Shown here piece after piece: positions 1 to 36,501 of a stretch of DNA of 64,000 nucleotides. Position 1 is the first letter of the stretch; each line of letters starts with the position of its first letter. This stretch comes from Amblyomma americanum. Its lineage: Eukaryota; Arthropoda; Arachnida; Ixodida; Ixodidae. The position numbers and the translations under genes were made by a program. The notes under the pieces were generated by a model. It was given only the letters and a program-made list of their open reading frames with translations, did not search any database and was not told the origin of the DNA. The stretch lies in NCBI RefSeq assembly GCF_052857255.1, contig NW_027526708.1:1-64000 (forward strand), in the 5' to 3' direction.

Positions 1-514
1 ATCAATTGTGATTGTTCTTTTCGGAAGGCAAGAAGAACGACGTCAGGAAAAAGTGCCCCTCATACATTAGGCAGAAACGTCGCAATGTCACGATAAAAAA
101 ATGAAGGAGCACAAAATCTTCGCCTTAAGGGTATGACGCGAAAGCTTTAATAAAATAATACCCATGCATGAAGAATTGGTCATTCTCTACTTAACATTCA
201 CAGATCCCTGGGAGTCATGATACCACTCCTTGCGCTGTCGCGTCGCGGTTAACTGATGCGCCACAGCCCTGCGATGGCAGGGGCTGCCACAGGCGGGGCA
301 CGTGCGACCAAGGTTGCTCTTAAAGCGCAACTTCTCGCAATATTACTTGTCTAACCGCCACGTGCCACACTGCGCAGTTCGCGCACAATCAGGTGGGCAG
401 ATTGTGATGACGCCACAATGTTAGCGGACCTAGGTGGCCCACCTGCATCCTAGATTGCTTCTCTGGGGATTTTTCATCAATTCATCGCTCACGGTCAATG
501 ACACCGACGACGTC

Positions 515-690
515 ACCGGATTTTGTAGCGACAGCTACATTACGCTAGCATTTCGAGCCTTCAGCGTGGCACCCCTTGAGCTCAGTGGCTTGTCACGTGG
601 TTGGCCACGTGGTTCCACTCAGGTTTCTCTCGGCCAGCTGTAGCTATCGCGTCACCCCATGTTTAACCAGAGCTATTTTCCCGTTGTTCT
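515..690 (-). repeat. Direct repeat unit A1 with CACGTG motifs
   Basis: This unit resembles 1,525-1,885 in the same orientation. Both share, on the - strand, a start like tctggttaaac, then gtgacgcgatagct, a stretch of repeated cacgtg/accaac words, gtgccacgctgaagg and an end like tagctgtcgctacaaaa. The two units flank the LINE reverse-transcriptase piece at 700-1,502. The mirrored copy is near 35,583-35,758. I do not recognise the family. The near-inverted words gcgatagct and agctgtcgc at its two ends suggest a small terminal-inverted-repeat element. Confidence 0.5.
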
Positions 691-699
691 GCATGTAAA

Positions 700-1502
700 G
701 GCCCAGTACTCAGAGAGTGTGCACCTCCGAGATGTATCGGTTTTGCAGTGTCACGGTAATAGGAGCTGCGGTGCTGTTTCGGGTTGTAGGGCGGATTATG
801 AGGGGCTCCGATTTCTCCGGAGAGCATGAGAGCCCTAAACTCCGCGCACGTGTTTTGGAGAGGGTAGCTGCCAACTTTAGAGTATTCTCTATGTCTCCAT
901 CACTGCCATGGGTGGTCCATAGAGTGATATCATCGGCATCGAGTGTATGCTGAAGGTGAGGGATGTCGTGTAGCTTGCGGCCAAGGGTAATGATAGTGAC
1001 ATTAAAGAGAAAAGGGGCGAGGACAGATCCCTGGGGGAGGGGTGGTGCCAACTGCACTAAGGGTGTATGGGTGGTATGTGTGGAGACCGAAGTGAATTTC
1101 GGCAGTGCGATTAGTAAAAAATGCTTGAATATAGGTGCACATGCGTTCCCCTACGTTCAATGGGGAGATGAATGTCATGATCGTTTCATGGTCTAGGCGA
1201 TCAAAGGCTTTGGAGAGATCCAAGGCGAGGACAGCTTTTGTGTGGCCGGGTATGAGGAGGTCGGAAATTTCTTGTCTGAGTTGGAGCTGGCATCCTGTGC
1301 TGACAGGTGGGGACGGAAGCCCATCATGCTGTTCGGGTAGAGGTCTTGCTCCGTCATGTGCTGGGTGAGTCGGGCAAGTGTGACATGTTCGAAAAGCTTG
1401 CCCAGGCATGAGGTTATTGAGATGGGTCAAACTTGCGACCCCGCTGACGGCTCGAAAATCTGACCTAGTGAAGCTTTCCGCTTCAAAAGCTTCGTAGAGC
1501 AA
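700..1502 (-). pseudogene. LINE reverse-transcriptase fragment (left arm)
   Basis: The - strand translation contains reverse-transcriptase landmarks in broken frames: LALDLSKAFDRLDHE (palm motif A), a degraded GTPQGS-like turn followed by PFLFN, and DADDITLW in place of the usual YADD box. These belong to the RT of non-LTR retrotransposons. Endonuclease and the rest of ORF2 are absent and the frame is interrupted, so this is a dead fragment. The right-arm copy (34,756-35,590, +) keeps YADDITLW but has Y in place of D in the SKAFDRLDH box, so the two copies have decayed independently. Confidence 0.75.
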
Positions 1503-1524
1503 TGCCAGGTGAGGTAGACTCGTG

Positions 1525-1885
1525 GTTTTGTAGCGATAGCTACACTACGCCACCTCTTCGACCCTTCAGCGTGGCACCACTTGAGCTCCATGGCAGCGCC
1601 GTTGGTCATGTGGCTGGTCGCGTGGGTTGATCACGTGGTGCGGCCGTTGGTCACGTGGTTGGTCAAATGGGTTGGTCTTGTGGTGCGGAGCAGCTGCTGC
1701 TGCTGGCGGCGCGGCGCGCAACAGCTGCAACAGCTGTGCGCATGCGCCGTGTCAAGTGGGTCGAAGATGAAGGTACGCCTAGCGAAATGGAGCGGCGAAA
1801 GACTGACTTTTTCAATTCGACTGAGCGAGTTCCACTAGGCCAGATGCAGCTATCGCGTCACAGCAGGTTTAACCAGAACTAAACC
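1525..1885 (-). repeat. Direct repeat unit A2 with CACGTG cluster
   Basis: A longer relative of unit A1 (515-690). It carries a run of words related to cacgtgaccaac on the - strand and a GC-rich block with a CAG/CTG-like stretch near 1,690-1,740. It sits immediately upstream, in - strand sense, of the LINE RT fragment. The mirrored copy lies near 34,416-34,748 and is about 28 bp shorter, which accounts for the small shift in arm alignment. Function unknown. Confidence 0.5.
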
Positions 1886-1917
1886 ACAGCCATTTTCTTC
1901 CGACACGAGCTCTATAA

Positions 1918-2155
1918 TCCGTGGCGGTGTCTCAGTGGTTATGGCGCTCGGCGGCTGACCTGAAAGACACGGGTTCGATCGCGGCCGTGGAAGTAAAATT
2001 TCATGGAGGCGAAATTCTAGAGTCCCGTGTACTGTACGGTGTCAGGGCACAATAAAGAACCCGAGGGGGTCGAAATTTCCGGAGCCCTCCACTACGACGT
2101 CTCTCATAGCGTGAGCAGCTTTGGGATGTTAAATCCCCATAAACCATAAAAACAA
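1918..2155 (+). mobile_element. Ruka-like tRNA-derived SINE
   Basis: The head ccgtggcggtgtctcagtgg with a B-box-like gggttcgatc is followed by the SINE body (gaaattctagagtcccgtgtactg) and the tail ggtcgaaatttccgg...gatgttaaatccccataaacc. A 7-bp direct repeat tctataa flanks it at 1,911-1,917 and 2,156-2,162, fitting a target-site duplication. The mirrored copy is at about 34,146-34,383 (-) in the right arm, so the insertion predates the inverted duplication. Confidence 0.85.
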
Positions 2156-2838
2156 TCTATAAAGCTATACAGAAGCGCACCTAATGTTTCTTCGTACTTC
2201 GCCAGCGCCGTTTCACGCCTGGAGGTCATTTCGGAACTTTTGTTCGGGTACGTTTACGTCGGTGATGGTGCTGCAAAGATTTTTATGTGCTTATTTACCA
2301 AGACGTATTGCATGGACCGGGCTTGAAGGACCCGGCCCTCACAATCTCTAGGAGGAGTCCTTAGTCCGGATCCCCGGTGGTGTCCGCGGCAGCTTGGGCT
2401 GTCACCAGGGATCGTTGGTCCAGGAGAGTCGGAGCTCATTGAGTCAGCAACGTCTTCACTGGTACGCGTGCTGCTGGCACCACTGGCATTCCCTTTTTCA
2501 TTGTGCGCAGGTGCCGTCCTGCTTGCAGGTGCAAGAAAGAGGTGTTGCCGCTCGTTGTGCGTCATGGCTGGAACTGCGCGGCGTTCAAAGAGTGATAACC
2601 TATTGTTTCGTCGACTTGCTCCTCGCCTTTCTCCACTGTATGGTTTGTGCAGGACGGCTTCCCGTGGCTAGAAAAAAAATGCACACAGAACTATAGTATG
2701 CTTGCATTGCCCTTGAACGCCAACCTTGAAAGTGCGTATTCCACAGCTTATTTTAAGCCGTTGCTTTTCAGGGCATTACCACGAAAGCTGAAAACATATG
2801 GCGTCAGTTATACGGCACATTTATTTTCCAAAATTTTG

Positions 2839-3816
2839 CATGAAGCTTAACATTTAGAGGACTAGGCATTACTCTAGTTATTCACGGATTAATGTTCATA
2901 TGGCCGAAAGCAATTTATAAAGAAGTAGTTAAGTGTCAAAATTTTTGTTTGCATATAAATCAGCTCGTGCATATGAAAGATGGCTCTGTAAATAAATTGC
3001 TTTGGGGATGCGCGTGTGCTATAACCGGCATTCATATAAATATACCTTCCGTTTACCTCAATAGTATTGATTAAATAAAACTAGAGCATTTTTTCTGTTG
3101 ACCATAAGTGAGCATATGGAAGGCGAATTTCGTGCGTGTTCTAATTTTTCCCTTCAGCCTCGCAAATCGCCTCAAAAGCACTTTATTCTATCTTCAGATA
3201 AAGATTATTGTCATTAATGTTCCGCTAAAGGGTAACAATATCCAAATTATTGGGTCAAGAGAACTGCATGCACCAAACTCCTCAGCCATCTAGCAAAATT
3301 GAGTATTTTGCGGGAATTATGACGGAATAAAAAAAGCTTTGCCTCGAATTTCGCGCTGCATATGATCTTGTCATTTGCTTACGACGCACATTTCGCCGTT
3401 TAATGTAACGGCGTTTTCGTCAAGGATCTGCTCCACGGAATGAATATAAACTAGTAGCAGCTCTCCTTTCTTCAGGTTAGCGCTGGAAAAGCAAAATCCG
3501 CGGTCCACCATTTCTTTGAACCCAAGTCATTGAGGCAGTTTCCTAATCTTCTGAAGGCCGCCAATGTTGAAGCGCGAGGAAAAAGCAGACGACTACGTAA
3601 ACATAATGGCAGGCAAACAAACACGTGCAAAGCACGTGCAAGACTGGCCTCTTTCGAGAGCAACGTCTGAGGCCTTCCTTCCTTCCTTCAAGAGCAAGCA
3701 CGCTGCTCACGAAGCTATTCGGTGGGATGAGTGACCGGTCAGCCCGGTCAGTTATGCAGAGTCGCCCGGAGAGGGCGCTTTTCACTGGCGCCTGCAGCGC
3801 CCCTCCACCCCTTCTC
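2839..3816. other. Segment present only in left arm, no gene seen
   Basis: This AT-rich block of about 980 bp is absent from the right arm, where the flanking sequences join directly (near 33,470) with only one or two bases of shared sequence. No element ends or target duplications are visible at its edges, so a deletion in the right arm is likelier than an insertion here. The stretch around 3,661-3,691 matches 61,909-61,938 in reverse complement over about 30 bp, with a GGAA-repeat core. No convincing coding region. Confidence 0.6.
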
Positions 3817-4489
3817 CTGCGATGCTGCTGTCTCCTAGCGGTCTTAAATGGTAGGCTTGTTTCATATTTGGCAGCACTATTCTTGAACTTTCCTATCATA
3901 GTTTTATGTTAATGACGGTGAAGCGAACGCGCACAGTCCCACGAGCCTGCAAGGCTCATGGCTTCGCTGGATGCTCCACTCGTCCCACAAAGGTTTCTGA
4001 CACCCTCAAATAGCACGATAATGCTGGACACTTTTTGTTTGCTATGTTAATGCCGTTGGTCCGGGACAAAGCCTAAGCGGAAAGAAGAATGAAAGCGCTT
4101 TGTTTTAAAACTCACGAGTATGGGCTGTTTCTGCTCCTGTTGATTATGATGACGGCAAAGGCATCACACAACTAAAGCTAACATGTTTTCCAGGAATAAT
4201 GGAAAGCTGGACGACTTCGTTTTTCTTGTAGCAGATGGAGCAGAAAAACGAGGTCAACACGAACATCCCCATCCCTCCTCCTGTAGGAGAGAGGCTCCTG
4301 TCTACTTGATGGAAGCGCCTTCGTGTAGTAGAGGCGGCGCCCAGCGTTGTGGTGCAGTGTGCACCACCTACCACGACTGGCAGGCGTCAAAGTGGAGAGA
4401 AAAATCTTCCTCTACACATTTAGGAGAGAGAAGGGAGAGGTCGGAAGGTGACCGGCATGGGAAGGACCCCGAGGCTGCTACCGCCGCCG

Positions 4490-4690
4490 GGTACCTACCG
4501 GTGATACAATGGGTACAAGCTTTCGCCTGGTTAGGTGCTCGGCTTATTTAGGGTGATATGCCTGGGAAATGGGTCGCTGAACCCGCCTTGAGGAGTCGAA
4601 AATACCTTGTGCAAGGGCGCTTTTTGGCCATAGACGCCCTTGCGCCATAAAAATTCGCAATCATCATCATTAGTTTTTCTGTTATTTTTT
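4490..4690 (+). repeat. Short interspersed repeat, copy 1
   Basis: Shares with 5,075-5,245 the ordered words atg/aatgg-tacaagctt, gtgctcggctt, gaaaataccttg(t/c)gc, and the end cgccataaaaatt followed by an ATT/ATC-rich tail. The tail makes it look like a retroposed element. Family unknown to me. Confidence 0.55.
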
Positions 4691-5074
4691 AATTGTCTTG
4701 TACAAGGAATTTAAACTTCGATGTAAAATAACCAAGCAATTGTTTCTTGAGTGCATTTTGACTATTCCCGTTCACAATCAAGCTACTTGTGCATTGATTA
4801 TAACGTGGGTGGTACGAAAAGAGATAACTATGCATATCTGTTAGAGAAGCCCTTTCTTCTCTTGTGCTTAATGGCGCTTTTGATGATGGTGGAGAAACTA
4901 CCAGTTACTTCCTCGTTACAGGCGACTTTTATGAGGAGTAGGCTAATCATTGTTCATTAACTTTTGTATTTCGGCTGCAATAACGGTCGCCCTTTTAGGG
5001 ACCAAAAGTGCAGTGTTCATGGAGAGGCATGACTTAATTCCTTTACAGTTCGATCCTTAGTGGCGCTTGTTATC

Positions 5075-5245
5075 CTCCGTTGATAAAATGGTTACAAGCT
5101 TTACAGGGGCCTAGTGCTCGGCTTCTGGCTGAAATACTTGAGAAATGACGCTTTGAAACCACTCTGAATAGAGGAAAATACCTTGCGCCATGGCACTCTT
5201 TGCCCATAGGTGACTTTTCGCCATAAAAATTATTATTACCATTGT
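5075..5245 (+). repeat. Short interspersed repeat, copy 2
   Basis: Diverged copy of 4,490-4,690 in the same orientation, about 400 bp downstream, ending in cgccataaaaattattatta. Both copies lie in the segment missing from the right arm. Confidence 0.55.
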
Positions 5246-6604
5246 TATAGCTAAGTCGAGGTAGCCGATATTCAGGACGTTTAACTACCACAATCAGCGC
5301 ATGTAATCGGCCCAATATTGCAAATATATTGGCAAAGGCCGGTCGTACAAAGGACCAGGGTAAAACAATCTTATTCCAATATTGAGCCGATTACCTGTGC
5401 TGTTACCATGTGGTTTTGTTTCGCAGAGGTCTCAACTTTCCTGGCTTCTGTATTTTTCCGCAGAAGCCTGTTAATTAATATGCTTTGTTCATTTGCGGCC
5501 TGATGCATTGCTGTTCCGCCAAGAAAGATTAATACAATGGGTAATGCATAGCAGAGAGCTATTCTTCCCTCGAGCGGAGTACTGAGCGGGCCGCTGTCTC
5601 TTTGCCAAGGTCGAAGAAGAGGCCTTTTGAAACAATTCAAACAGCATACTCCTAAAAGAGCTTGACTATAAGTGGGAAAACGCTATCATGATTTCTCAGA
5701 ATGCTGAATGTTTCACCGCTTTAGCGAATGTGGTATTCACGCATTGTATGTCCTGCTCTTTCTTTTTAGTTTCAACAACAGTACAGTCATCCACACACCT
5801 ATCTAGAGCGCTCCGGCGGGAAACTGGATTATACATTGTTCAAAGTCGCCGCTCCCTGGCGTTTAATATAAAATGTTTAAAGGCATGGGGAGTTAAAAAC
5901 GATCCATATTAATGTGCCTGCGCGATGCGGGTTTTGTTTCCAGCACTTGACCACTCGTAAATCATGCCAATATGCTCCTAAGTGCGTCGGTCGAGCGCTT
6001 AAGGCAGGGCTGAGAACGTATGAAAACGCAAAGGCGTTCACACTTTGCGTGTTCTATTTTTGGCGTCAGCAACAAGATGGCAAGGTTGTCGACACAAGAG
6101 CATAGAGCCGACTGACTAAAACCCTTTGAGTTGAGTGGAAAGTTATTTAGGCAAGGAAGGTGGCATGACAATGGGTTGGGGTGGGGAGGTTGGGGGGGGC
6201 GGGGCGGTATCGAGCACTAAGCAGAATTTCCAATGTTTGCACGCTTCCTATTCACCTCGTATTGCTCTAATCAGGCCACTAACGTAGACATGTCTTTCAA
6301 ATTCCGTTTGAACATCATAGTCGGTTGGTAAACGGTGGCGATAGTTAAAATGGAAGTGTGCGATCACGGAACGCATAAAGAAGAAAAATTCCCGTTATGA
6401 CGATATGAATGCGGCGTCTAAAGCTTACGGAGACTTTGGCATGTAGAATGAACTTGTAATGTAGAGTAAGTCCCCTTACTTTAAAAACTGTCGTACAGTC
6501 TTGGTCAAAAGTGATAAGGCCACAACATTGAGCGCATAAGCGCCGTCACTTGTTTTTTTATTTGTCATATTTCCTAGGGTTTCTTTAAATGCCACAAAAT
6601 AAAT

Positions 6605-6838
6605 GCCACGTATGGTTTATTGGGGCTTAACGTCTCAAAGCGACTCAGGCTATGAGGGACGCCGTAGTGAAGGGCTTCGGGAATTTCGACCAACTGGGGT
6701 TCTTCAACGTGCACTGACATTGCACAGTACACCGGCCCCTAGAATTTCGCCTCCATCGAAATTCAGCCGCGGCGGCCTGGATGTAACCCGAGTCTTACGG
6801 TCCAGCCGAGCGCTAACCACTGAGCCACCGCGGAGGCT
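6605..6838 (-). mobile_element. Ruka-like SINE (left arm)
   Basis: On the - strand it reads from a head gcctccgcggtggctcagtg through the tRNA-like promoter region to the tail gagacgttaagccccaataaacc near 6,605. The mirrored copy is 31,974-32,207 (+). It is a complete element by layout and shared by both arms. Confidence 0.9.
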
Positions 6839-6975
6839 TAGGAGGTACGTTTCTACAAAAGATTGCATTGGTTCTTTCTTAAAGCGCTTTTAAGCTTAAC
6901 TAAATGCACGTGACCCTAAAGTGATTATTTTGAATTTTGCATAATTGATCTTACCTAAGTACCTAATTAATCTAA

Positions 6976-7691
6976 GCCCCAGAGCGGTGCATCTGCTTCA
7001 TGCAGATGTTGATCAGTGGTGACACCACGGGTTCCCGAGCATCCGAATTGACATTCCCGCAGGGGATGATGGTGAACAGTGCATCGCTACACTTCTGAGA
7101 ACCCGTGGCCGCGGAAAAAGGGATCCTGGTGGTTGAGCCGATGCCGAGCGTTTGGATCTTTAAGGCTATCGGCGGAGGCAACACACCACTTTGGCTCTAG
7201 CTTCCTGTAGACGGCACCTCTGGCCTGACCCGACCGGAGGAAATCGGCAGTCGCCCTTTCCTGTTCTCCCCTTCATATTTAACTTTCCTATCTTCTTTCT
7301 CGCAACTCTCTTATCTTCTATTCACTTCTGAGTTTTTCCTTTTTTTTTTCCTGGCGGCGAGGGTTAACCTTGTGTGGCGAACTACCCTGGATTTCGTCAT
7401 ATTTGGTTACAGTTGAGGTGAACAGCTGGCGTGGGCAGGACTTGCAAGTTCCTGACCCGTCCTCTTGTTGGGCTCCGTGGTGGGTGGCTGGCACCATGAC
7501 TGAAAAACTAAAATTTTTATGGCTCCCCTTCTTTCCAATCCTGATCGCTCTCTCAAAAAAGGGCGGAACGATGAAGACTTTTTCTGAAGAGAAAGATAAC
7601 ATTCTCAAATTCCATGTTGTCGATAATAAAACAGAAGATAAAATGCAAAACTCATATCCCCATTCCGAGTCTCAAAATGCTTGACGGACGC
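6976..7691 (+). mobile_element. 5' part of LINE-D (left arm)
   Basis: A GC-rich leader is followed by a pyrimidine-rich stretch and the start of an ORF1-like reading frame at about 7,498. The frame reaches the word cttgacggacgc at 7,680-7,691, where a different LINE begins. In the right arm the same join is at 31,120-31,131. There, the rest of this ORF1 is found beyond the inserted composite at 23,909 and below, because the peptide LTDA continues as LTDALGISYK. The N-terminal frame is already shifted relative to that continuation. Confidence 0.6.
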
Positions 7692-9012
7692 GAAGAAGAA
7701 GTGGTGGTACCGAACGTCTCAGCCGGCCTTATTCTTTTCTCATCATTGGCCACGGTATCAAATGCCACAAATTATGTTAACGAAGAACAGTGTAACACCG
7801 ATTGGTGTTGATCTCAGTTCTTTGCAGTGGGTTGTTGGCACGCCGGCAGCAGTGGAATTCTATTTCGACCACATCTTCCCATCTCATGCGAAACTGAAGC
7901 CGGCAAGCATTTTAAACGGCCTTCTCTCTGATCACATAGAGGAATACCCCTATCATATGGTGTTTTCTACCGATGCCTTCGTCAGCTGCCTAAAAGCTGC
8001 AGTTTGTATCTTTTCGCAGGATTTGGCCTGGAGCTATTTTGTCCGCATCCCTGATTATATTCCTATATTCTTTGCAGAATTTTTGGCTCTTGGATTGGCC
8101 CTGCAAAACATTCCATGTCATGTGTCTCACGTTATTATTCTCGCTGATTGTTTGAAAGGTTTAGTCTACCTTGAAGCGTCACAAAAAGATTCTCTAAGCC
8201 GTTTCCTGCTATTTTTTGTCTCATGCACTTTGAAGGAGGTTCGTTTTGTCTGGGTCCCTGCCCATGTAGGTATTCATTCAAATGAGGTGGCTGACTACTT
8301 AGCAAGGTCGGCTCTTGACAGGTCAGTGACACATCTTGTCCCGAATTTCAGCCTGCTGGCCATTTCCAGGTTTCAGCGGTTCCAGCACATATCAGCCAGG
8401 TTACGTGATCTCTTACTAAATACCACTTATTATCAGCACTTAGCATATAATTGGAATGGCCGTTCGTATAAAACCAGGCTGTGTGAGGTATCAATGACGT
8501 CGTTGCGGTGCAGGATTCCCAGTTTGAATTTGTATCTAAGCAGGTGTGGGTTGACACCTGAAAATCTACGTGACGCATGCGGGGAACTTGAATCTGTAGG
8601 CCGTTTTCTCCTAGCTCTACTCTCCACTGTTCGCACTTCAGAGCAAGATTCACCCGGAGGTTCCTCTCTCCAGGTTAGGGTTCCCGTTATCTCTGCCAGT
8701 GTAACTATCGTTCGGTGCAAGCGCCAAAGGATTTGCACTGGATTCAATTTGTGGAATTCTCCATGATTACATTGTTGCAACTGGTGGGTTTATTTGCTAA
8801 TTCTTTTAATATTCTTCGAGCTCTTCTTTTTTCACCAAACTGCTGTCTGTTATTTTACTTTAAATATTCTTCTGTCGTTTCCATTGATACCTTTTTCAAA
8901 ATTCACGCTTGGTAATCTTCTATGGAAATTTCCTTGTTTTTGCCACTACACTTGGCCAATCCCCCATGTGTGTAAGTGACATGCCTTAAGAGGACAAAGA
9001 AGAAGAAGAAGG
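7692..9012 (+). pseudogene. LINE-B 3' fragment with RNase H (left arm)
   Basis: An open frame to 8,766 encodes the C-terminal part of a non-LTR ORF2. It has an RNase H domain (FSTDAF near residue 95, FVWVPAHVGIHSNEVADYLA near residues 190-210) followed by a degraded zinc-finger-like tail (CRIP...CGELESVGRFLL). The upstream endonuclease and RT are missing. A 3' UTR follows and the fragment ends in an AAG-repeat tail at about 8,996-9,010, directly abutting the ORF1 of another LINE. The right-arm copy has only about five residue changes. Confidence 0.8.
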
Positions 9013-10385
9013 TCCCTTGCGTCCTCTCGTCGTCACCGTCTCAAAGACTGCGGCTCCACCAGCTGGCAACTCCCGTGCCGTGAACGTCGCTGATGTGGAG
9101 GTTCCAGATTCGCCTGATGAATGCACGGTGACAGGTATAGAATCCGACAGCAGCAGCTTCACGCTTGTTGAGTCGCGCCGCCTGAAAAGGAAGTTGCGCC
9201 GGACATCAACAGCGGTTGAGTTGCCTACGAGGACTATTGACAAGCCAGGAGTTTTCTCAGTGGCATTCGTTCCTACAACGCAGACGACTATTCTGAACAC
9301 CATTAACAGGCAACGGCCAACCCTGTTTTTCTACCGGGTGGTTCCGGAACAAGTCTGTGAAGTCAGAATTAATGCATGGAACAATGTCCTGACAGCAGAT
9401 GTTAAATCTTAGGCATCAGTCGATAAGCTGAAAGAAGCTAGTGTCCTCGGTGGCATGGCGGTCCGCTCCTACGTTGCTCACGGGAAGCCGACTACCACTG
9501 GAGTTATCACTGATGTTGACCCGGAGAGAGATGACATTCATCGCTTCGGCCGCTCCAAGTGTGTCAAGTTAGTTTTTGAAGCTGACGCTCTCCCATCCCA
9601 CGTCAAGGGGGAGGGGGCTATGTGAGGCATCCTGTCCGCCTGTATGTTCTAAGGCCTGTTCAGTGCCTTAAGTGCAACAATTCAGGTTTCATCAATGCAA
9701 TTCAGGTTTCATCAATGTATGACTACAAGCTATGTCGTTTGTATAAACTCTGTTTACTAAAGAAATAATGACGCCATAACAAGCTTAGCACAACTAGCGG
9801 AAAACTTCCCTATTTATAATGTTCGCCATCCGGAAGTGTGGTACGCCGCCAAATGCAGAACCAATTATGGACATCAAATGTTGAAATTTTTACTTCCCAC
9901 ACTTCTAAATCGCGTGTTAAAAGAAACTAACATTGACATATCTGGTATATCACCAAAAGAACTGCGTGAAGTGTTTGTATAATGATGACATACACTGACC
10001 TTTTTTTTTCTCTTCTTTGTCTTCCTAGGGCTTTCCTCTTCGAATGATTTTGGTTAACTCATGTATTTGTTTTGTCCAAGTGTACTTCCTTAGCCGCACG
10101 TTTTTTTATGCTGTCCATGTGCAAGGGGGTCAGGGCTCTTCAAGCTGTTTCGCACAGATTTTACCTGCCCTCCTCGTAACTTTTTTGTTGCGGAATATAT
10201 TTGATTGATTTGATTTGAAAGATAGGTCATGTGAGTGCTGTTTGCAACAATGAGGTATCCTGCCGTCGATGCGGCGGGATGCACCAGCATGACACCTGCA
10301 CGACCGAGACTATAAAGTGCACCAACTGCTCGGGTGCCCATGAAGCCACAGCTAAGGACTACCCTAAGCTGAAAAGAAAAAACTC
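9013..10385 (+). pseudogene. LINE-A ORF1 (gag-like), left arm, truncated
   Basis: ORF1 nucleic-acid-binding protein of a non-LTR retrotransposon, lacking its true 5' end. The first part (9,017-9,412) runs to a stop and the frame continues afterwards through the words SYVAHGKPTTTGVI and RPVQCLKCN. The zinc knuckles CxxCxxGHxxxxC, CRRCGGMHQHDTC and CTNCSGAH are visible, but the first is split by a 540-bp insertion (9,683-10,224). Arm homology ends right after the knuckles, so the ORF2 that follows in the right arm is missing here. Confidence 0.8.
9683..10224 (+). mobile_element. LINE-C 3' fragment inserted in zinc knuckle (left arm)
   Basis: It carries the end of a non-LTR ORF2 (peptide words YNVRHPEVWYAAKC and RTNYGHQMLKFLLP), a stop, a short 3' UTR and a terminal TTGAT-type repeat (10,192-10,220). 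That tail is typical of CR1/L2-like elements. It interrupts the first ORF1 knuckle of LINE-A between QCLKCN and GHVSAVC. A 20-bp duplication (caattcaggtttcatcaatg) sits at its 5' edge. The mirrored copy is about 28,588-29,129. Confidence 0.7.
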
Positions 10386-10869
10386 AGTGGGGAATTGGCC
10401 AGCACTTGGTGCTGATTAAAAAAGAAGAAAAATTCATCCAGGCTTATCTGAAGCGGCTCATGAATAAATAGTGAGAGGGAGGAAAAATGAAGAAAAATGA
10501 CGAATTCTCGAGATATTTTGATGAGACTGGAAAGAAAATCCACGAAACATAGAGGTGAAGGTTCGACTAAATTAATTAAAAAGTAAAATAATAAATAAAC
10601 AATTTTTGAGAGAAAAGTAAAGAGAAGAAAGACTTAACATAAAGATTTCCCGGTCTCGATAACATACTTGTGAAGAAGCTCACGTAAGAGCTCAAAGGGG
10701 CTCTGAAACACCTTCCGAGGAGAACACATCAACTCGCTCAACCACTGCGTTGTGTTGTCATGAGAACCTGAGCCAACTAATACAATTCTACGCACATCAG
10801 AGGGCCGACAATCACGCACGAAAGTTGGCGAGCCCTCCCTGGTGATTTTTTTATCCTCGCACCCTCCTC

Positions 10870-11375
10870 CGTCACTAGCACCTGCGTATACAAGTTGAGA
10901 GGCAGCTATTGGTTATATTCTTTGAGACGTCAGGCAGCTACCATGGCCGTGGCCAATAAGACGCGTGTGTTCGACGTGTCAGGAAGCTCCGCCCCGGAGG
11001 TTGGGCCGGGAGAGGAGCACAGACCTTCTCACTAAGGAGGAACATGTAGTGTTACGCAAACGACAAACTAATGCATACCCACACCTCAGCCTTCTGCATA
11101 GGATGCATGTATCTCGTGCTATATCCAGATAAATGCCCATTTTGTGGAGAATACTCGAATATATTTCATACGATGTGGGCATGCCAAAAAAACGAGGAGC
11201 TAGCGATCATCACAAACTCCACAATTGAGCTGTGGGAAGGGATGCCGACCAGCTCACGCCTGGAGGACCAGAAAGCACTGGTGCAACGGGCGAGACAGGC
11301 GGCTATCTTCAATGGGGTCCTAGACTGAGGACTGCACTCACTTTTTTTTGCTCATAAATAGTTTTGTTCATTCAT
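10870..11375 (+). pseudogene. LINE-E 3' fragment
   Basis: C-terminal part of a non-LTR ORF2: a word LLTKEEHVVLRKRQTNAYPH, then a CCHC finger CPFCGEYSNIFHTMWAC and the ending QKALVQRARQAAIFNGVLD followed by a stop at about 11,328. The same ending pattern occurs in the - strand fragments at 45,179-45,435 and 62,274-62,716, so all three belong to one LINE group. It is 5'-truncated and lies just inside the left-arm boundary. Confidence 0.75.
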
Positions 11376-11399
11376 TCCAGCGTGCGAAAAGTGAGGGGA

Positions 11400-12830: not shown

Positions 12831-13027
12831 CAAATCCCTGCACACACCTCGAAGAATGCCACCCGGGCAGGGGGAGTTGCGCCGAAAAGAACTGTGCAGA
12901 TTTGTATCGCCCTCGATTACCGGCTATGTGTACAGCTGAACGGTTGCCCAAGTGCTTCTGTAAGCGTCATTTATATAGGAGAAACGAGGATGGCAAGTGT
13001 GTCAGGAGACGCTTGTGCAAACAGTGA
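12831..13027 (+). CDS. Terminal exon of TIL-like secreted cysteine-rich protein
   Basis: The exon follows a clean acceptor (ttgtctctgctattccag) and enters in phase 1, encoding 64 residues to a TGA. The protein is cysteine-rich: NPC, EEC, GSC, KNC, AMC, then PKCFC, DGKCV and RRLC. From the third cysteine the spacing is C-x4-C-x11-C-x7-C-x-C-x12-C-x5-C, exactly the spacing of the exon at 62,869. The CxC...GKCV...C ending is that of trypsin-inhibitor-like (TIL) domains, which in ticks include secreted serine-protease inhibitors and antimicrobial peptides (ixodidin, BmSI-7). One canonical cysteine between the x11 and x7 blocks seems missing. Target protease and role cannot be read from sequence. 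No upstream exon was found in the window, so it may be the tail of a broken gene or of one beginning further left. Confidence 0.8.
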
Positions 13028-13085
13028 TAGCTGATCATCCACCCATCAAGGGTCAAGTTACAGAGCTCTTTCTTTCAGACCGATG

Positions 13086-20515: not shown

Positions 20516-20559
20516 TCTTTTTGTTACTATATTGTCCGCTTCCAGTACACAGCCGCCGC

Positions 20560-23920: not shown

Positions 23921-24087
23921 AGAGAGAGGGTTCATTGACGGAAAAGGCCGAGAGGTTGGCCTGAAAACTAAAAATCTGGCCTGCTACTCTGCACTTGGGA
24001 ACGAGAAGAGGAGAAAAAAGAGGGTCACGATGGGTGTTTACGATGATGGGAGGAGGCAGCTGAAAAAAAAAGGTACACTTTCTAACA

Positions 24088-27000: not shown

Positions 27001-27915
27001 GAGATCATACGTGGCTTTAGTTCTTCTGTATTTCCTTTCGACGCGCCGACGGACTGCGCGTAGCATTTCGAATCCCACGTAAATAGTAGATCCCGGCGTA
27101 GGCGCACTTATATACCGCGTGGTCTCACCGAGAGAGGACGTAATCAGGTCTTCTGTTTCAGACGGTGTTGTGAGGTCCACACAGGAAGTCTCCACGGGCG
27201 TCCTAAAGGCAGGCCAGTCTGTATATCACACGCGAGGCGAAGTAGTAGGTGCGTACCACTTGACGCATACATACGTTGGAATGTGGTCACTCCCATGTGT
27301 TTCCACGTCACTGCACCAGCTGACGTAGGACAGGAGACTTGTTGAAACTAACGCCAGGTCCAAGCAGCTGCTGTACGACGTGCCACGCAGAAACGCAGGG
27401 GAGCCATCGTTGATATTGACGAAATTCTGGGAGTGCATCAAGTCAAACAGGTTCTTGCCTCGGTTATTCTTAACAGCACCGCTCCACTGAGGGTGATGAG
27501 CATTAAAATCGCCCGCTATTATATGAGGAGCTGTGCAAATCTGGATAGCTGAATGTAGGTACGAAGTATCGATATCATCTCTAGGTGGAATGTAGGCACC
27601 GATTATCGAAAAGACCCGTCCTTTTAGCGTCACTGTCAAACAGATGCAATGGTTTGTGTTTTGTGGCTTTAGGACTTGGCGGACGTGCGCAATGTCTTGG
27701 CGTATGCAAACTCACACTTTGCTAGTTTCGTCTTCTGTGCGAGACCACAGCAGCACGTATCCAGAAAGGCGGAAAGGCGACGGCATGTTGGGCTCACATA
27801 TAACCAGCACAGGGAAGCGGTACTTGTGGACGCGTTGCCAGAAGTCACTCTGACGACCTCGTAGGCCTCGGGCATTCCATTGCACCACTACACTACGGCG
27901 CACGTGCATTGTCAC
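24088..27915 (-). pseudogene. LINE-A ORF2: endonuclease, RT, RNase H (broken)
   Basis: ORF2 of a non-LTR retrotransposon of the RNase-H-bearing I/jockey-like type. In order: an AP endonuclease (VVVQWNARGLRG at the start, GDFNAHH near 27,500, GSDHIP near 27,285); RT with STPGSDGI and WKISRLVALLKPGK (about 26,500-26,680), GVPQVGVLSPTLFN (about 25,880-25,905) and YADDICIW (about 25,790-25,812); RNase H (YTEGS near 24,945, where the usual first catalytic Asp is Glu, and FQWIRGHCGLDGNESDDAEAS); and a C-terminal finger C..C...HVLVVC. Frame changes occur near 25,815 and 25,545 among others, and a foldback element splits the RT at 26,028. Not functional as read. Confidence 0.88.
26028..26196. mobile_element. 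Foldback element, copy 1
   Basis: A 169-bp insertion flanked by the 12-bp direct repeat ggcatcaaggat (26,016-26,027 and 26,197-26,208), interrupting LINE-A RT. It is mostly a hairpin of 65-nt arms with no loop (26,028-26,092 and 26,093-26,157, about two mismatches), containing agcgct near the outer part of each arm. It ends with an unpaired tail that includes atctagcccaaactg. The element at 51,832-51,980 has the same plan. Confidence 0.85.
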
Positions 27916-27959
27916 AGAGGAGGCGGGTTTCGTTGGGCCATAATGAATTACTGCAATGC

Positions 27960-29800
27960 CGCCAAGAGCGGCTTAAGTGCATCCAAAAACTGCACAACCA
28001 TCTTTTCTATTGGCATGTTAATGCCTGAAAGGAGCACGTGCATTGAACACACAAGCCTTTTTAACATAATGCTCACATCCTGACCTTCGGGCTTGCCAGC
28101 AGTGCAAGCTGGAGTGGCAACCAATCTTGGTCTTGCCGTGGCGATGTCCTTGGATGGCAGAGCAGGCCATTCAGCATCAGAGGAAGTTGATAACACAAAC
28201 GCATCAGACTGAGCCACTGCGGTAACATGGGACACTGCCGCAGGCGTCTTGTTATCGTTTTTAGGCTCATGCTGCTGTGCCGGATGAGCTGATACTTCCT
28301 GCGACTATGGTGCAGGTGGACTAGTATTGTGTGGATCCGGACGACGCCGCCGGGTAACGATGTATGCGGCGACGAATACGCCGCTTCTTGGAGGGTCGAA
28401 TTGTCCTTCACCCTTTTTTTCAGGATGAGTTTTTCTTTTTCAGCTTAGGGCAGTCCTTAGCTGTGGCTTCATGGGCACCCGAGCAGTTGGCGCACTTTAT
28501 AGTCTCGGTCGTGCAGGTGTCATGCTGGTGCATCCCGCCGCATCGACGGCAGGATACCTCATTGTTGCAAACAGCACTCACATGACCTATCTTTCAAATC
28601 AAATCAATCAAATATATTCCGCAACAAAAAAGTTACGAGGAGGGCAGGTAAAATCTGTGCGAAACAGCTTGAGGAGCCCTGACCCCCTTGCACATGGACA
28701 GCATAAAAAAACGTGCGGCTAAGGAAGTACACTTGGACAAAACAAATACATGAGTTAACCAACATCATTCGAAGAGGAAAGCACTAGGAAGACAAAGAAG
28801 AGAAAAAAAAGGTCAGTGTATGTCATCATTATACAAACACTTCACGCAGTTCTTTTGGTGATATACCAGATATGTCAATGTTAGTTTCTTTTAACACGCG
28901 ATTTAGAAGTGTGGGAAGTAAAAATTTCAACATTTGATGTCCATAATTGGTTCTGCATTTGGCGGCGTACCACACTTCCGGATGGCGAACATTATAAATA
29001 TGGAAGTTTTCCGCTAGTTGTGCTAAGCTTGTTATGGCGTCATTATTTCTTTAGTAAACAGAGTTTATACAAACGACATAGCTTGTAGTCATACATTGAT
29101 GAAACCTGAATTGCATTGATGAAACCTGAATTGTTGCACTTATGGCACTGAACAGGCCTTGGAACATACAGGCGGACAGGATGCCTCACATAGCCCCCTC
29201 CCCCTTGACCTGGGATGGGAGAACGTCAGCTTCAAAAACTAACTTGACACACTTGGAGCGGCCGAAGCGATGAATGTCATCTCTCTCCGGGTCAACATCA
29301 GTGATAACTCCAGTGGTAGTCGGCTTCCCGTGAGCAACGTAGGAGCGGACCGCCATGCCACCGAGGACACTAGCTTCTTTCAGCTTATCTACTGATGCCT
29401 AAGATTTAACATCTGCTGTCAGGACATTGTTCCATGCATTAATTCTGACTTCACATACTTGTTCCCGAACCACCCGGTAGAAAAACAGGGTTGCCCGTTG
29501 CCTGTTAATGGTGTTCAGAATAGTCGTCTGCGTTGTAGGAACGAATGCCACTGAGAAAACTCCTGGCTTGTCAATTGTCCTCGTAGGCAACTCAACCGCT
29601 GTTGATGTCCGGCGCAACTTCCTTTTCAGGCGGCACGACTCAACAAGCGCGAAGCTGCTGCTGTCGGAATCTATACCTGTCACCGTGCATTCATCAGGCG
29701 AATCTGGAACCTCCACATCAGCGACGTTCACGGCACGGGAGTTGCCAGCTGGTGGAGCCGCAGTCTTTGAGACGGTGACGACGAGAGGACGCAAGGGACC
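27960..29800 (-). pseudogene. LINE-A ORF1 (right side, with continuation to ORF2)
   Basis: The right-arm counterpart of 9,013-10,385. Here it continues beyond the zinc knuckles through an ORF1 tail (28,411-28,073 and on) to just before the ORF2 start. The first knuckle is again split by LINE-C (about 28,588-29,129), so that insertion is older than the inverted duplication. Its 5' end directly abuts the AAG tail of LINE-B at 29,801, without an ORF1 start or leader. Confidence 0.78.
28588..29129 (-). mobile_element. LINE-C 3' fragment (right arm)
   Basis: Mirror of 9,683-10,224, with the same TTGAT-type tail and duplicated 5' edge. It splits the first ORF1 zinc knuckle of LINE-A. Confidence 0.7.
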
Positions 29801-31119
29801 TTCTTCTTCTTCTTTGTCCTCTTAAGGCATGTCACTTACACACATGGGGGATTGGCCAAGTGTAGTGGCAAAAACAAGGAAATTTCCATAGAAGATTACC
29901 AAGCGTGAATTTTGAAAAAGGTATCAATGGAAACGACCGAAGAATATTTAAAGTAAAATAACAGACAGCAGTTTGGTGAAAAAAGAAGAGCTCGAAGAAT
30001 AATAAAAGAATTAGCAAATAAACCCACCAGTTGCAACAATGTAATCATGGAGAATTCCACAAATTGAATCCAGTGCAAATCCTTTGGCGCTTGCACCGAA
30101 CGATAGTTAAACTGGCAGAGATAACGGGAACCCTAACCTGGAGACAGGAACCTCCGGGTGAATCTTCCTCTGAAGTGCGAACAGTGGACAGTAGAGCTAG
30201 GAGAAAACGGCCTACAGATTCAAGTTCCCCGCATGCGTCACGTAGATTTTCAGGTGTCAACCCACACCTGCTTAGATACAAATTCAAACTGGGAATCCTG
30301 CACCGCAACGACGTCATTGATACCTCACACAGCCTGGTTTTATACGAACGGCCGTTCCAATTATATGCTAAGTGCTGATAATAAGTGGTATTTAGTAAGA
30401 GATCACGTAACCTGGCTGATATGTGCTGGAACCGCTGAAACCTGGAAATGGCCAGCAGGCTGAAATTCGGGACAAGATGTGTCACTGACCTGTCAAGAGC
30501 CGACCTTGCTAAGTAATCAGCCACCTCATTTGAATGAATACCTACATGGGCAGCGACCCACACAAAACGAACCTCCTTCAAAGTGCATGAGACAAAAAAT
30601 AGCAGGAAACGGCTTAGAGAATCTTTTTGTGACGCTTCAAGGTAGACTAAACCTTTCAAACAATCAGCGAGAATAATAACGTGAGACACATGACATGGAA
30701 TGTTTTGCAGGGCCAATCCAAGAGCCAAAAATTCTGCAAAGAATATAGGAATATAATCAGGGATGCGGATAAAATAGCTCCAGGCCAAATCCTGCGAAAA
30801 GATACAAACTGCAGCTTTTAGGCAGCTGACGAAGGCATCGGTAGAAAACACCATATGATACGGGTATTCCTCTATGTGATCAGAGAGAAGGCCGTTTAAA
30901 ATGCTTGCCGGCTTCAGTTTCGCATGAGATGGGAAGATGTGGTCGAAATAGAATTCCACTGCTGCCGGCGTGCCAACAACCCACTGCAAAGAACTGAGAT
31001 CAACACCAATCGGTGTTACACTGTTCTTCGTTAACATAATTTGTGGCATTTGATACCGTGGCCAATGATGAGAAAAGAATAAGGCCGGCTGAGACGTTCG
31101 GTACCACCACTTCTTCTTC
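29801..31119 (-). pseudogene. LINE-B 3' fragment with RNase H (right arm)
   Basis: Mirror of 7,692-9,012. The open frame 30,045-31,130 encodes the same RNase H segment, with the histidine loop now FVWVAAHVGIHSNEVAD (Ala for Pro). It ends in an AAG-type tail at 29,801-29,814. Confidence 0.8.
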
Positions 31120-31836
31120 GCGTCCGTCAAGCATTTTGAGACTCGGAATGGGGATATGAGTTTTGCATTTTATCTTCTGTTTTATTATCGACAACATGGA
31201 ATTTGAGAATGTTATCTTTCTCTTCAGAAAAAGTCTTCATCGTTCCGCCCTTTTTTGAGAGAGCGATCAGGATTGGAAAGAAGGGGAGCCATAAAAATTT
31301 TAGTTTTTCAGTCATGGTGCCAGCCACCCACCACGGAGCCCAACAAGAAGACGGGTCAGGAACTTGCAAGTCCTGCCCACGCCAGCTGTTCACCTCAACT
31401 ATAACCAAATATGACGAAATCCAGGGTAGTTCGCCACACAAGGTTAACCCTCGCCGCCAGGAAAAAAAAAAGGAACAACCCAGAAGTGAATAGAAGATAA
31501 GAGAGTTGCGAGAAAGAAGATAGGAAAGTTAAATATGAAGGGGAGAACAGGAAAGGGCGACTGCCGATTTCCTCCGGTCGGGTCAGGCCAGAGGTGCCGT
31601 CTACAGCAAGCTAGAGCCAAAGTGGTGTGTTGCCTCCGCCGATAGCCTTAAAGATCCAAACGCTCGGCATCGGCTCAACCACCAGGATCCCTTTTTCCGC
31701 GGCCACGGGTTCTCAGGTGTGTAGCGATGCACTGTTCACCATCATCCCCTGCGGGAATGTCAATTCGGATGCTCGGGAACCCGTGGTGTCACCACTCATC
31801 AACATCTGCATGAAGCAGATGCACCGCTCTGGGGTT
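31120..31836 (-). mobile_element. 5' part of LINE-D (right arm)
   Basis: Mirror of 6,976-7,691: leader plus N-terminal ORF1 of the LINE whose remainder lies at 23,096-23,920. The two halves rejoin across the 12-bp duplication gcgtccgtcaag. Confidence 0.65.
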
Positions 31837-31973
31837 TAGATTAATTAGGTACTTAGGTAACATCAATTATGCAAAATTCAAAATAATCACTTTAGGGTCA
31901 CGTGCATTTAGTTAAGCTTAAAAGCGCTTTAAGAAAGAACCAATGCAATCTTTTGTAGAAACGTACCTCCTAA

Positions 31974-32207
31974 GCCTCCGCGGTGGCTCAGTGGTTAGCG
32001 CTCGGCTGGACCGTAAGACTCGGGTTACATCCAGGCCGCCGCGGCTGAATTTCGATGGAGGCGAAATTCTAGGGGCCGGTGTACTGTGCAATGTCAGTGC
32101 ACGTTGAAGAACCCCAGTTGGTCGAAATTCCCGAAGCCCTTCACTACGGCGTCCCTCATAGCCTGAGTCGCTTTGAGACGTTAAGCCCCCATAAACCATA
32201 CGTGGCA
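31974..32207 (+). mobile_element. Ruka-like SINE (right arm)
   Basis: Mirror of 6,605-6,838, reading from cctccgcggtggctcagtgg to gacgttaagcccccataaacc. Confidence 0.9.
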
Positions 32208-34145
32208 TTTATTTTGTGGCATTTAAAGAAACCCTAGGAAATATGACAAATAAAAAAACAAGTGACGGCGCTTATGCGCTCAATGTTGTGGCCTTATCAC
32301 TTTTGACCAAGACTGTACGACAGTTTTTAAAGTAAGGGGACTTACTCTACATTACAAGTTCATTCTACATGCCAAAGTCTTTGTAAGCTTTAGACGCCGC
32401 ATTCATATCGTCATAACGGGAATTTTTCTTCTTTATGCGTTCCGTGATTGCACACTTCCATTTTAACTATAGCCACCGTTTACCAACCGACTATGATGTT
32501 CAAACGGAATTTGAAAGACATGTTTACGTTAGTGGCCTGATTAGAGCAATACGAGGTGAATAGGAAGCGTGCAAACATTGGAAATTCTGCTTAGTGCTCG
32601 ATACCGCCCCCCCCCCCAACCTCCCCACCCCAACCCATGGTCATGCCACCTTCCTTGCCTAAATAACTTTCCACTCAACTCAAAGGGTTTTAGTCAGTCG
32701 GCTCTATGCTCTTGTGTCGACAACCTTGCCATCCTGTTGCTGACGCCAAAAATAGAACGCGCAAAGTGTGAACGCCTTTGCGTTTTCATACGTTCTCAGC
32801 CCTGCCTTAAGCGCTCGACCGACGCACTTAGGAGCATATTGGCATGATTTACGAGTGGTCAAGTGCTGGAAACAAACCCGCATCGCGCAGGCACATTAAT
32901 ATGGATCGTTTTTAACTCCCCATGCCTTTAAACATTTTATATTAAACGCCAGAGAGCGGCGACGTTCCATCAAGTAGACAGGAGCCTCTCTCCTACAGGA
33001 GGAGGGATGGGGATGTTCGTGTTGACCTCGTTTTTCTGCTCCATCTGCTACAAGAAAAACGAAGTCGTCCAGCTTTCCATTATTCCTGGAAAACATGTTA
33101 GCTTTAGTTGTGTGATGCCTTTGCCGTCATCATAATCAACAGGAGCAGAAACAGCCCATACTCATGAGTTTTAAAACAAAGCGCTTTCATTCTTCTTTCC
33201 GCTTAGGCTTTGTCCCGGACCAACGGCATTAACATAGCAAACAAAAAGTGTCCAGCATTATCGTGCTATTTGAGGGTGTCAGAAACCTTTGTGGGACGAG
33301 TGGAGCATCCAGCGAAGCCATGAGCCTTGCAGGCTCGAGGGACTGTGCGCGTTCGCTTCACCGTCATTAACATAAAACTATGATTGGAAAGTTCAAGAAT
33401 CGTGCTGCCAAATATGAAAACAAGCCTACCATTTAAAACCGCTAGGAGACAGCAGCATCGCAGGAAATTTTGGAAAATAAATGTGCCGTATAACTGACGC
33501 CATATGTTTTCAGCTTTCGTGGTAATGCCCTGAAAAGCAACGGCTGAAAATAAGCTGTGGAATACGCACTTTCGAGGTTGGCGTTCAAGGGCAATGCAAG
33601 CATACTATAGTTCTGTGTGCATTTTTTTTCTAGCCACGGGAAGCCGTCCTGCACAAACCATACAGTGGAGAAAGGCGACGAGCAAGTCGACGATACAATA
33701 GGTTATCACTCTTTGAACGCCGCGCAGTTCCAGCCATGACGCACAACGAGCGGCAACACCTCTTTCTTGCACCTGCAAGCAGGACGGCACCTGCGCACAA
33801 TGAAAGAGGGAATGCCAGTGGTGCCAGCAGCACGCGTACCAGTGAAGACGTTGCTGACTCAATGAGCTCCGACTCTCCTGGCCCAACGATCCCTGGTGAC
33901 AGTCCAAGCTGCCGCGGACACCACCGGGGATCCGGACTAAGGACTCCTCCTAGAGATTGTGAGGGCCGGGTCCTTCAAGCCCGGTCCATGCAATACGTCT
34001 TAGTAAATAAGCACATAAAAATCTTTGCAGCACCATCACCGACGTAAACGTACCCGAACAAAAGTTCCGAAATGACCTCCAGGCGCGAAACGGCGCTGGC
34101 GAAGTAGGAAAAAACATTAGGTGCGCTTCTGTATAGCATTATAGA

Positions 34146-34383
34146 TTGTTTTTATGGTTTATGGGGATTTAACATCCCAAAGCTGCTCACGCTATGAGAG
34201 ACGTCGTAGTGGAGGGCTCCGGAAATTTCGACCCCCTCGGGTTCTTTATTGTGCCCTGACACCGTACAGTACACGGGACTCTAGAATTTCGCCTCCATGG
34301 AATTTTACTGCCACGGCCGCGATCGAACCCGTGTCTTTCAGGTCAGCCGCCGAGCGCCATTACCACTGAGACATCGCCACGGA
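34146..34383 (-). mobile_element. Ruka-like SINE (right arm, second)
   Basis: Mirror of 1,918-2,155, again flanked by the ttataga/tctataa repeat. Confidence 0.85.
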
Positions 34384-34755
34384 TTATAGAGCTCGTGTCG
34401 CAAGAAAATGGCTGTGGTTTAGTTATGGTTAAACCTGCTGTGACGCGATAACTACATCTGGCCTAGTGGAATTCGCTCAGTCGAATTGAAAAAGTCAGTC
34501 TTTCGCCGCTCCGTTTCGCTAGGCGTACCTTCATCTTCGACCCACTTGACACGGCGCATGCGCACAGCTGTTGCAGCTGTTGCGCGCCGCGCCGCCAGCA
34601 GCAGCAGCTGCTCCGCACCACAAGACCAACCCATTTGACCAAGCACGTGACCAACGGCCGCACCACGTGATCAACCCACGTGACCAGCCACATGACCAAA
34701 GGGTGCCACGCTGGTAGTGTAGCTATCGCTACAAAACCACGGGTCAACCTCCCCT

Positions 34756-35590
34756 GTGGCAGTGATGCTAGCATTGCTCTACAAAGCTTTTGAAGCGGAA
34801 AGCTTCACTACGTCAGCTTTTCCAGCCGTCAGCGGGGTCGCAAGTTTGACTCATCTCAATAACCTCATGCCTGGGCAAGCTTTTCGAACATGTCGCACTT
34901 GCCCGACTCCCCCAACACATGACGGAGCAAGACCTATACCCGAACAGCATGATGGGCTTCCGTCCCCACCTGTCAGCACAGGATGCCAGCTCCAACTCAG
35001 ACAAGAAATTTCCGACCTCCTCATACCCGGCCACACAAAAGCTGTCCTCGCCTTGGATCTCTCCAAAGCCTTTTATCGCTTAGACCATGAAGCGATCATG
35101 GCGTTCCTCTCCCCTTAACCGTAGGTGAACGCATGTACACCTATATTCAAGCATTTTTTACTAATCGCACTGCCGAAATTCACTTCGGTCCCCACATATA
35201 CCACCCATACACCCTTAGTGCAGTTGGCACCCCCCACCCCCCAGGGATCTGTCCTCTCCCCTTTTCTCTTTAAAGTCACTCTCATTACCCTTGGCCGCAA
35301 GCTACACGGCATCCCTCATCTTCAGCATACACTCTATGCCGACGATATCACGCTATGGAGCACCCATGGCAGTGATGGAGACAGAGAATTCTCTAAAGTT
35401 GGCAGCTACCCTCTCCAAGACACGTGCGTGGAGTATCAGGCTCCCATGCTCTCCGGAGTAATCGGAGCCCCTCATACTCCGGCCCGCAACCCGAAACAGC
35501 ACCGCAGCTACCATTACAGTGACACTGCAAACCCGATACATCTCGGAGGTGCACACTCTCTGGGTACTGGGCCTTTACATGCAGAACAAC
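34756..35590 (+). pseudogene. LINE reverse-transcriptase fragment (right arm)
   Basis: Mirror of 700-1,502. Palm words VLALDLSKAF, TPQGSVLSPFLF and YADDITLW are visible in shifted frames. Non-functional fragment between the two A-type repeats. Confidence 0.75.
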
Positions 35591-36501
35591 GGGAAAATAG
35601 CTCTGGTTAAACATGGGATGACGCGATAGCTACAGCTGGCCGAGAGTAACCCGAGTGGAACCACGTGGCCAACCACGTGACAAGCCACTGAGCTCAAGGG
35701 GTGCCACGCTGAAGGCTCGAAATGCTAGCGTAATGTAGCTGTCGCTACAAAATCCGGCGGCGTCGTCGGTGCTATTGACCGTGAGCGATGAATTGATGAA
35801 AAATCCCCAGAGAAGCAATCTAGGATGCAGGTGGGCCACCTAGGTCAGCTAACCTTGTGGCGTCATCAAAACCTGCCCACCTGATTGTGCGCGAACTGCG
35901 CAGTGTGGCACGTGGCGGTTAGACAATTAATATTGCGAGAGTTGCGCTTTAAGAGCAACCTTGGTCGCACGTGCCCCGCCAGTGGCAGCCCCTGCCATCG
36001 CAGGGCTGTGGCGCATCGGTTAACCGTGACGCGACAGCGCTAGGAGTGGTATCATGACTCCCAGGGATCTGTGAATGTTAAGTAGCGAATGACCAATACT
36101 GCATGCATGGGTATTATTCCATTAACGTTTTCGCTTCATACCCTTAGAGCGGAGCTTATGTGCCCCTCCACTTTTTTATCCTGACATTGCGACATTTTTG
36201 CCTAATGTATGAGGGGCACTTTTCCTGACGTCGTTCTTCTTGCTTTCCGAAAAGAACAATCACAATTGCTTTCCACCACACTGCCGGGGGAACGTTTTTC
36301 GTTATGCGTGAAAAATAGCGGCGAACAATACACCATGTGTTTACGCAGTGTAATAAAGGTTGAAAATACGAAGTGTTCTTTTTTAGATGAATAAAAGGCA
36401 TTCAACGGAAAAGATGTGCTTGCAAGACGAAATTCCCTCCATGACGACAGATGTTCAAACGATTTTAAAGAAACTACAGCTGTTGCAGCCACTGTTTCTG
36501 A

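What the first reader, a model, noticed from the sequence alone, without database searches (positions are those of the whole stretch)
1..36270. A 36 kb near-palindrome: two arms of 8-10 kb around an 18 kb spacer
The arms are about 98-99% identical over at least 7.8 kb in opposite orientation. A large young inverted duplication next to a secreted-peptide gene family is a plausible engine for copy-number change. Differences between arms (substitutions, 28-bp indel, two kilobase gaps) argue against a simple read-foldback artefact, but two haplotypes placed in opposite orientation in one contig remain possible.
Basis: seen in the sequence. Interest (0 to 1): 0.75.

Follow-up and report, generated by a model that had tools for sequence, protein, structure and literature searches.

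The report
Inverted duplication of tick transposon DNA
A stretch of tick DNA made largely of old jumping-gene remains appears twice in opposite directions about 18 kb apart; it looks like an ordinary inverted duplication, though only raw sequencing reads can fully rule out an assembly error.

Summary
The near-palindrome is in the sequence. Arm A (1-10386) matches arm B (28426-36270) in opposite orientation around an 18,039-bp spacer. Identity is uneven: 98.8% over the inner 5.7 kb, about 95% over the outer 2.1 kb. The alignment reaches window base 1, so the outer ends are not visible. Arm A carries 978 bp and 1527 bp that B lacks, with no target-site duplication seen, which suggests two deletions in B. 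At B's inner edge a tick LINE ORF1 continues across the junction in colinear order; at A's inner edge it breaks off. So B is the native arrangement, and A is the derived copy or a false join at 10386. Domains found in arm A are retrotransposon only; no TIL-type secreted-peptide exon was found in either arm. One lies in the spacer, and a two-exon gene model of that type lies outside. Recombination between inverted arms would flip the spacer, not multiply it, so 'engine for copy-number change' is not supported. Best reading: an ordinary young inverted segmental duplication in a tick (probably Amblyomma). Misassembly stays open because the host assembly and reads could not be reached.

The parts
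1..10386 (+). Arm A (derived copy, or the misjoined side); reaches the window start; contains 978 bp (2837-3814) and 1527 bp (4315-5841) absent from arm B
   Evidence: self-BLAST and global alignment
28426..36270 (-). Arm B, inverted relative to A; native arrangement at its inner edge
10387..28425 (.). Spacer, 18,039 bp; the only match to the arms found is a weak 124-bp one of 68.5% (11703-11826)
   Evidence: whole window, E up to 1e-10; 10380-13331 and 19263-28425, E up to 1e-3
1..2158 (-). Outer part of arm A with higher arm-to-arm divergence (4.9%): LINE reverse-transcriptase fragment (RVT_1) plus a SINE-like repeat at 1924-2158; partner in B about 34143-36270
2837..3814 (.). A-only segment 1 (978 bp, ends uncertain by a base or two); no target-site duplication or terminal inverted repeat seen; read as a deletion in B
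4315..5841 (.). A-only segment 2 (1527 bp, ends uncertain by a base or two); B has one extra base at the join; read as a deletion in B
9017..10386 (+). 5' part of a LINE ORF1 in arm A, cut off at the inner junction
   Evidence: tblastn of 7 ORF1 relatives
24088..29797 (-). LINE in arm B and spacer: ORF1 29797-27951 (with an insertion shared with arm A) continuous across the inner junction 28426, then endonuclease (27226-27639) and reverse transcriptase (from about 26478); extension down to 24088 by ORF inspection only
13332..19262 (-). Ty3/gypsy LTR retrotransposon in the spacer; 373-bp LTRs differ at 5 positions; ATAT on both sides
12831..13027 (+). TIL-like cysteine-rich last exon (secreted-peptide type) inside the spacer; acceptor CAG before 12831, stop at 13025-13027; just under the Pfam cut-off (23.5 vs 24.5 bits); first exon not found
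36580..36640 (+). Signal-peptide-like first exon just outside the visible end of arm B, with consensus donor GTAAGT at 36641, phase 1
62869..63077 (+). TIL-domain exon outside the palindrome (26.1 bits, above the cut-off); AG acceptor before 62869 in phase 1, so it can be spliced to 36580-36640 (model, not proven)

Best explanation
An ordinary inverted segmental duplication with a spacer in a tick nuclear genome. Shown: B's inner edge lies inside a colinear LINE ORF1, while A's inner edge breaks that ORF, so the B side is the source arrangement. [quoted passage not shown] Shown: the arms now differ by about 1.2% evenly spread substitutions in the inner part and by two kilobase segments; inferred: both segments were deleted from B. 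The outer LINE part is more diverged, perhaps by exchange with other LINE copies (inferred, weak). No function is shown; the one expected effect is occasional inversion of the 18-kb spacer by recombination between the arms.
For: Three colinear inverted blocks, SINE-like repeats in matching places in both arms, and a shared ORF1 insertion. All 7 LINE ORF1 relatives match B on both sides of 28426 (for P0001, residues 261-309 at 28593-28447, then 342-475 at 28355-27951); in A the match of all 7 ends at 10371-10389 and none matches the DNA beyond. Inner substitutions are spread evenly (18 bins of 250 bp, mean 2.8, variance 2.3), with 3 small indels in 4545 columns. Within the window no sequence is shared across the A junction on which overlapping reads could have been wrongly joined. 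ATAT on both sides of the spacer's LTR element suggests that its flanks belong together; modest evidence, only 4 AT-rich bases.
Against: No raw reads, coverage or second individual was available. The outer junction is outside the window. Whether a genome-wide repeat lies at the A junction could not be tested. The 7 relatives were found with a query that already contained the B continuation, so relatives with the A continuation were not sought there; the one search that did (66-aa ORF across the A junction) found no candidate, which is uninformative but not supportive. The fourfold higher divergence in the outer 2.1 kb is not predicted by a single duplication event alone.
Confidence: 0.62

Rival explanations
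1. Assembly artefact: arm A is the other haplotype (or a paralogue elsewhere) of the B locus, joined in inverted orientation by a chimeric read or a wrong path, with the false join at or near 10386 or inside the spacer's LTR element.
For: Only one inner edge (B) is colinear with known elements, as expected if A's join is false. Divergence of 1.2% plus kilobase differences is also compatible with alleles. Tick assembly papers mention potential uncollapsed haplotigs in other Dermacentor assemblies (PMC12341941, passages) and substantial allelic variation in Ixodes scapularis (PMC10561763, passages). The window begins inside the palindrome, so it may sit at a contig end (not testable).
Against: No sequence shared across the 10386 join within the window. 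Matching ATAT flanks the LTR element.
Confidence: 0.32
2. A composite or fold-back transposable element whose long inverted arms move together with the spacer.
For: Long inverted arms around a spacer resemble fold-back elements in outline.
Against: The inner edge falls in the middle of a LINE reading frame, the arms are mosaics of LINE and SINE-like pieces, and no transposase domain was found in six-frame Pfam scans of arm A (such scans miss weak or short matches). Element ends cannot be judged because the outer ends lie outside the window.
Confidence: 0.05

Closest known systems
Inverted segmental duplications with a spacer (repair- or replication-born; recalled class)
   Same: Two long, highly similar arms in opposite orientation around a spacer; one native and one derived edge; later changes in one arm
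   Different: Nothing that the window shows; outer edges and mechanism of origin are not visible
Haplotypic or chimeric inverted joins in draft assemblies of heterozygous genomes
   Same: Percent-level divergence and kilobase differences between the copies; one edge without natural continuation
   Different: No overlap sequence found at the suspicious join, within the window
Gene-conversion palindromes such as those of mammalian Y chromosomes (recalled)
   Same: Inverted arms around a spacer
   Different: Those usually exceed 99.9% identity (recalled); these arms differ at 2.2% of compared columns, so no recent homogenisation is seen

Membership tests
Inverted segmental duplication | Two copies of at least 1 kb and at least 90% identity (recalled criterion), in opposite orientation | tested here: met
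Inverted segmental duplication | Not simply two insertions of one transposable element: the duplicated block is a mosaic in the same order in both arms | tested here: met
   LINE reverse-transcriptase fragment, SINE-like repeats, RNase-H-like ORF (below the Pfam cut-off) and ORF1 in the same order in both arms
Inverted segmental duplication | Both junctions physically present in the genome | not testable with these tools
   no reads; search of the host assembly did not complete in 10 of 10 attempts
Conversion-maintained palindrome | Arm identity close to 100% (recalled) | tested here: not met
   173 of 7832 compared columns differ; 1.2% inner, 4.9% outer
Misassembled haplotypes | Arm read depth about half of the flanks; no read through the join | not testable with these tools
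   no reads available
Fold-back transposable element | Defined element ends with target-site duplication and multiple genomic copies | not testable with these tools
   outer ends lie outside the window; genome search not answered

The most novel reading that the evidence does not exclude
A real, population-variable inversion switch: recombination between the arms flips the 18-kb spacer and so changes the orientation and neighbourhood of a TIL-type secreted-peptide exon, perhaps joining it to different upstream exons in some ticks. The evidence does not exclude this, but nothing seen supports it directly.
Probability: 0.04. Interest if true: 0.45.

Novelty: new member of a known kind. Interest (0 to 1): 0.15.

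Why it matters
Mostly as a caution: tick genomes are large and rich in repeats, and such inverted blocks can be real duplications or assembly faults. The continuity test used here (which junction keeps a transposon reading frame colinear) gives the duplication a direction and names the single junction, 10386, that a read or PCR has to verify.

Tried and rejected
Chance similarity: rejected (best of 5 shuffles 38.3 bits). Read fold-back: rejected because of divergence, kilobase differences and the long spacer. Codon-position bias of the differences in the outer LINE, as a sign that the arms carry LINE copies that diverged while active: inconclusive (positions 1:2:3 = 13:4:12 in 710-1057 and 8:9:4 in 1058-1502). 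Protein-level search for an independent contig with the A junction (66-aa ORF 10219-10416): no candidate. Terminal repeats or target-site duplications on the two A-only segments: none seen by eye or in a short-word self comparison. Signal-peptide-like ORF present in both arms (A 4077-4172, B 33107-33202, one base different): considered as a first exon, but no GT donor lies between its hydrophobic stretch and its stop; the next GT, at 4185, is beyond the stop. Of 24 signal-peptide-like starts in the window, 13 begin at or below 36000; apart from this one they were not followed up. A seven-cysteine ORF is in both arms (2352-2693 and 33608-33949); the TIL queries did not match it. Pfam scans of long frames with stops as X miss short exons: the TIL exons at 62808 and 12812 were missed in the long frames. 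The absence of TIL exons in the arms therefore rests mainly (phmmer of two TIL exons, a third cysteine-rich ORF and one signal-peptide ORF against all window ORFs of at least 15 aa; the two TIL exons find each other at E 0.0004 and 0.008, and no arm ORF scores better than E 0.41).

Full report
What is there. Self-comparison of the 64-kb window finds three colinear inverted blocks: A 5842-10386 with B 28426-32966 (98.75% over 4545 columns), A 3815-4314 with B 32965-33465 (98.8%), and A 3-2836 with B 33465-36268 (93.96% counting gaps). Between these blocks arm A carries 1527 bp (4315-5841) and 978 bp (2837-3814) that B lacks. The spacer is 10387-28425. The best inverted match in 5 two-mer shuffles of the window has 38.3 bits, against 7930 for the longest block.

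The arms are not uniformly alike. Of 7832 compared columns 173 differ. A 2159-10386 has 70 of 5718 (1.2%) and A 1-2158 has 103 of 2114 (4.9%), P = 1.6e-19. The inner rate is even (variance below the mean over 18 bins). The outer rate is patchy (9.6% in 1-220, 3.8% in 221-780, 8.3% in 781-1180, 3.4% in 1181-1923) and drops at the SINE-like repeat that begins at 1924. I cannot explain this step firmly; exchange with other LINE copies, or polishing of a high-copy repeat with foreign reads, are candidates (inference). The alignment reaches window base 1, so the outer ends of both arms are out of sight.

Which side is original. Seven LINE ORF1 relatives were found (2 of 7 carry names, from the ticks Dermacentor albipictus and Haemaphysalis longicornis). 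On the B side P0001 matches in order from 29797 down to 28447 and on from 28355 to 27951, across the inner junction at 28426. The other six also match on both sides of it; their second stretch begins at 28355 (P0002) or at 28196-28169 (P0003-P0007) and ends at 27951 or 27954. On the A side the match of all 7 ends at 10371-10389. A caution: the search query contained the B continuation, not the A continuation. The order in B goes on with an endonuclease and reverse transcriptase. B's inner edge is therefore the natural one and A's the derived one. The two A-only segments show no target-site duplication or terminal inverted repeat, and B's second join carries one extra base. The simplest reading is two deletions in B after the duplication; it is not proven.

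What else lies there. The spacer holds a Ty3/gypsy element 13332-19262 with 373-bp LTRs differing at 5 positions and ATAT on either side. Its pol is 97% identical over its whole length to a protein of Amblyomma americanum, which makes an Amblyomma tick the likely source. LTR divergence (1.3%) and inner-arm divergence (1.2%) are similar; which event came first is not resolved. Six-frame Pfam scans of arm A (E up to 0.01) give only RVT_1 and an RNase_H match below its cut-off. A TIL-like last exon lies in the spacer at 12831-13027 with a good acceptor. A TIL-domain exon at 62869-63077 can be paired in phase with a signal-peptide exon at 36580-36640 that ends in a consensus donor, which would make a 26.5-kb gene just outside the visible palindrome (a model, no transcript seen). 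Not scanned with Pfam as whole frames: arm B beyond 29900, plus-strand frames of 19263-28425, minus-strand frames of 10380-13331 and of 36270-64000, and one plus frame of 50670-64000.

Mechanism and consequence. Most likely a repair- or replication-born inverted copy of the B-side DNA was joined at 10386 (inferred). Recombination between inverted arms flips the spacer; it does not multiply the TIL exon. If the arms reach further than the window shows, they could include the signal-peptide exon at 36580; that is untested.

Real or artefact. For real: no sequence within the window that is shared across the 10386 join, substitutions and kilobase differences between the arms, and matching ATAT around the spacer's large repeat. 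For artefact: only one natural edge, no reads, and tick assembly papers that mention potential uncollapsed haplotigs and substantial allelic variation (passages of PMC12341941 and PMC10561763). The search of the host assembly did not complete in 10 of 10 attempts, and the one protein-level test of the A junction found nothing. I put about 0.62 on a real duplication and 0.32 on a false join.

Literature. Tandem and possibly segmental duplication in ticks is already described at gene level (PMC4793754, passages). The listings (1 paper shown; 6 shown; 12 of 23 shown) named no paper on this locus or on tick palindromes, and one search returned none; these searches cover only the held open-licence library and I saw titles and abstract beginnings.

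Noticed in passing
window 26026-26159: A 134-bp nearly perfect palindrome without spacer (97% self-complementary) lies just after the first reverse-transcriptase stretch of the LINE in the spacer (26478-26194).
   Followed up: no
window 41514-41995: 482-bp inverted pair of SINE-like repeats (86% self-complementary); ARAGORN and Rfam call a tRNA there (41766-41839) and at 45665-45739. A tick SINE named Ruka is described as tRNA-Ser-like (PMC3160391, passages); that these are Ruka copies was not tested by sequence.
   Followed up: partly
window 36580-36640 and 62869-63077: Possible secreted TIL-domain gene with a 26-kb intron: signal-peptide exon with donor GTAAGT in phase 1 and TIL exon with acceptor in phase 1. 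The first exon starts about 310 bp outside the visible end of arm B, so a partner copy could lie left of the window.
   Followed up: partly
window 4077-4172 and 33107-33202: A 32-codon open frame with a signal-peptide-like start, present in both arms with one base different, without a splice donor before its stop.
   Followed up: partly
window 62199-62273: Perfect (TGAG)n microsatellite, 18.8 copies.
   Followed up: no
window 9678-9717 and 29094-29133: Exact 20-bp tandem duplication in both arms, next to an insertion of about 0.5 kb in the LINE ORF1 that both arms share; it probably predates the duplication.
   Followed up: partly
window 1-1923 versus about 34378-36270: Patchy, roughly three- to eightfold higher divergence between the arms in the outer LINE fragment, unexplained.
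   Followed up: partly
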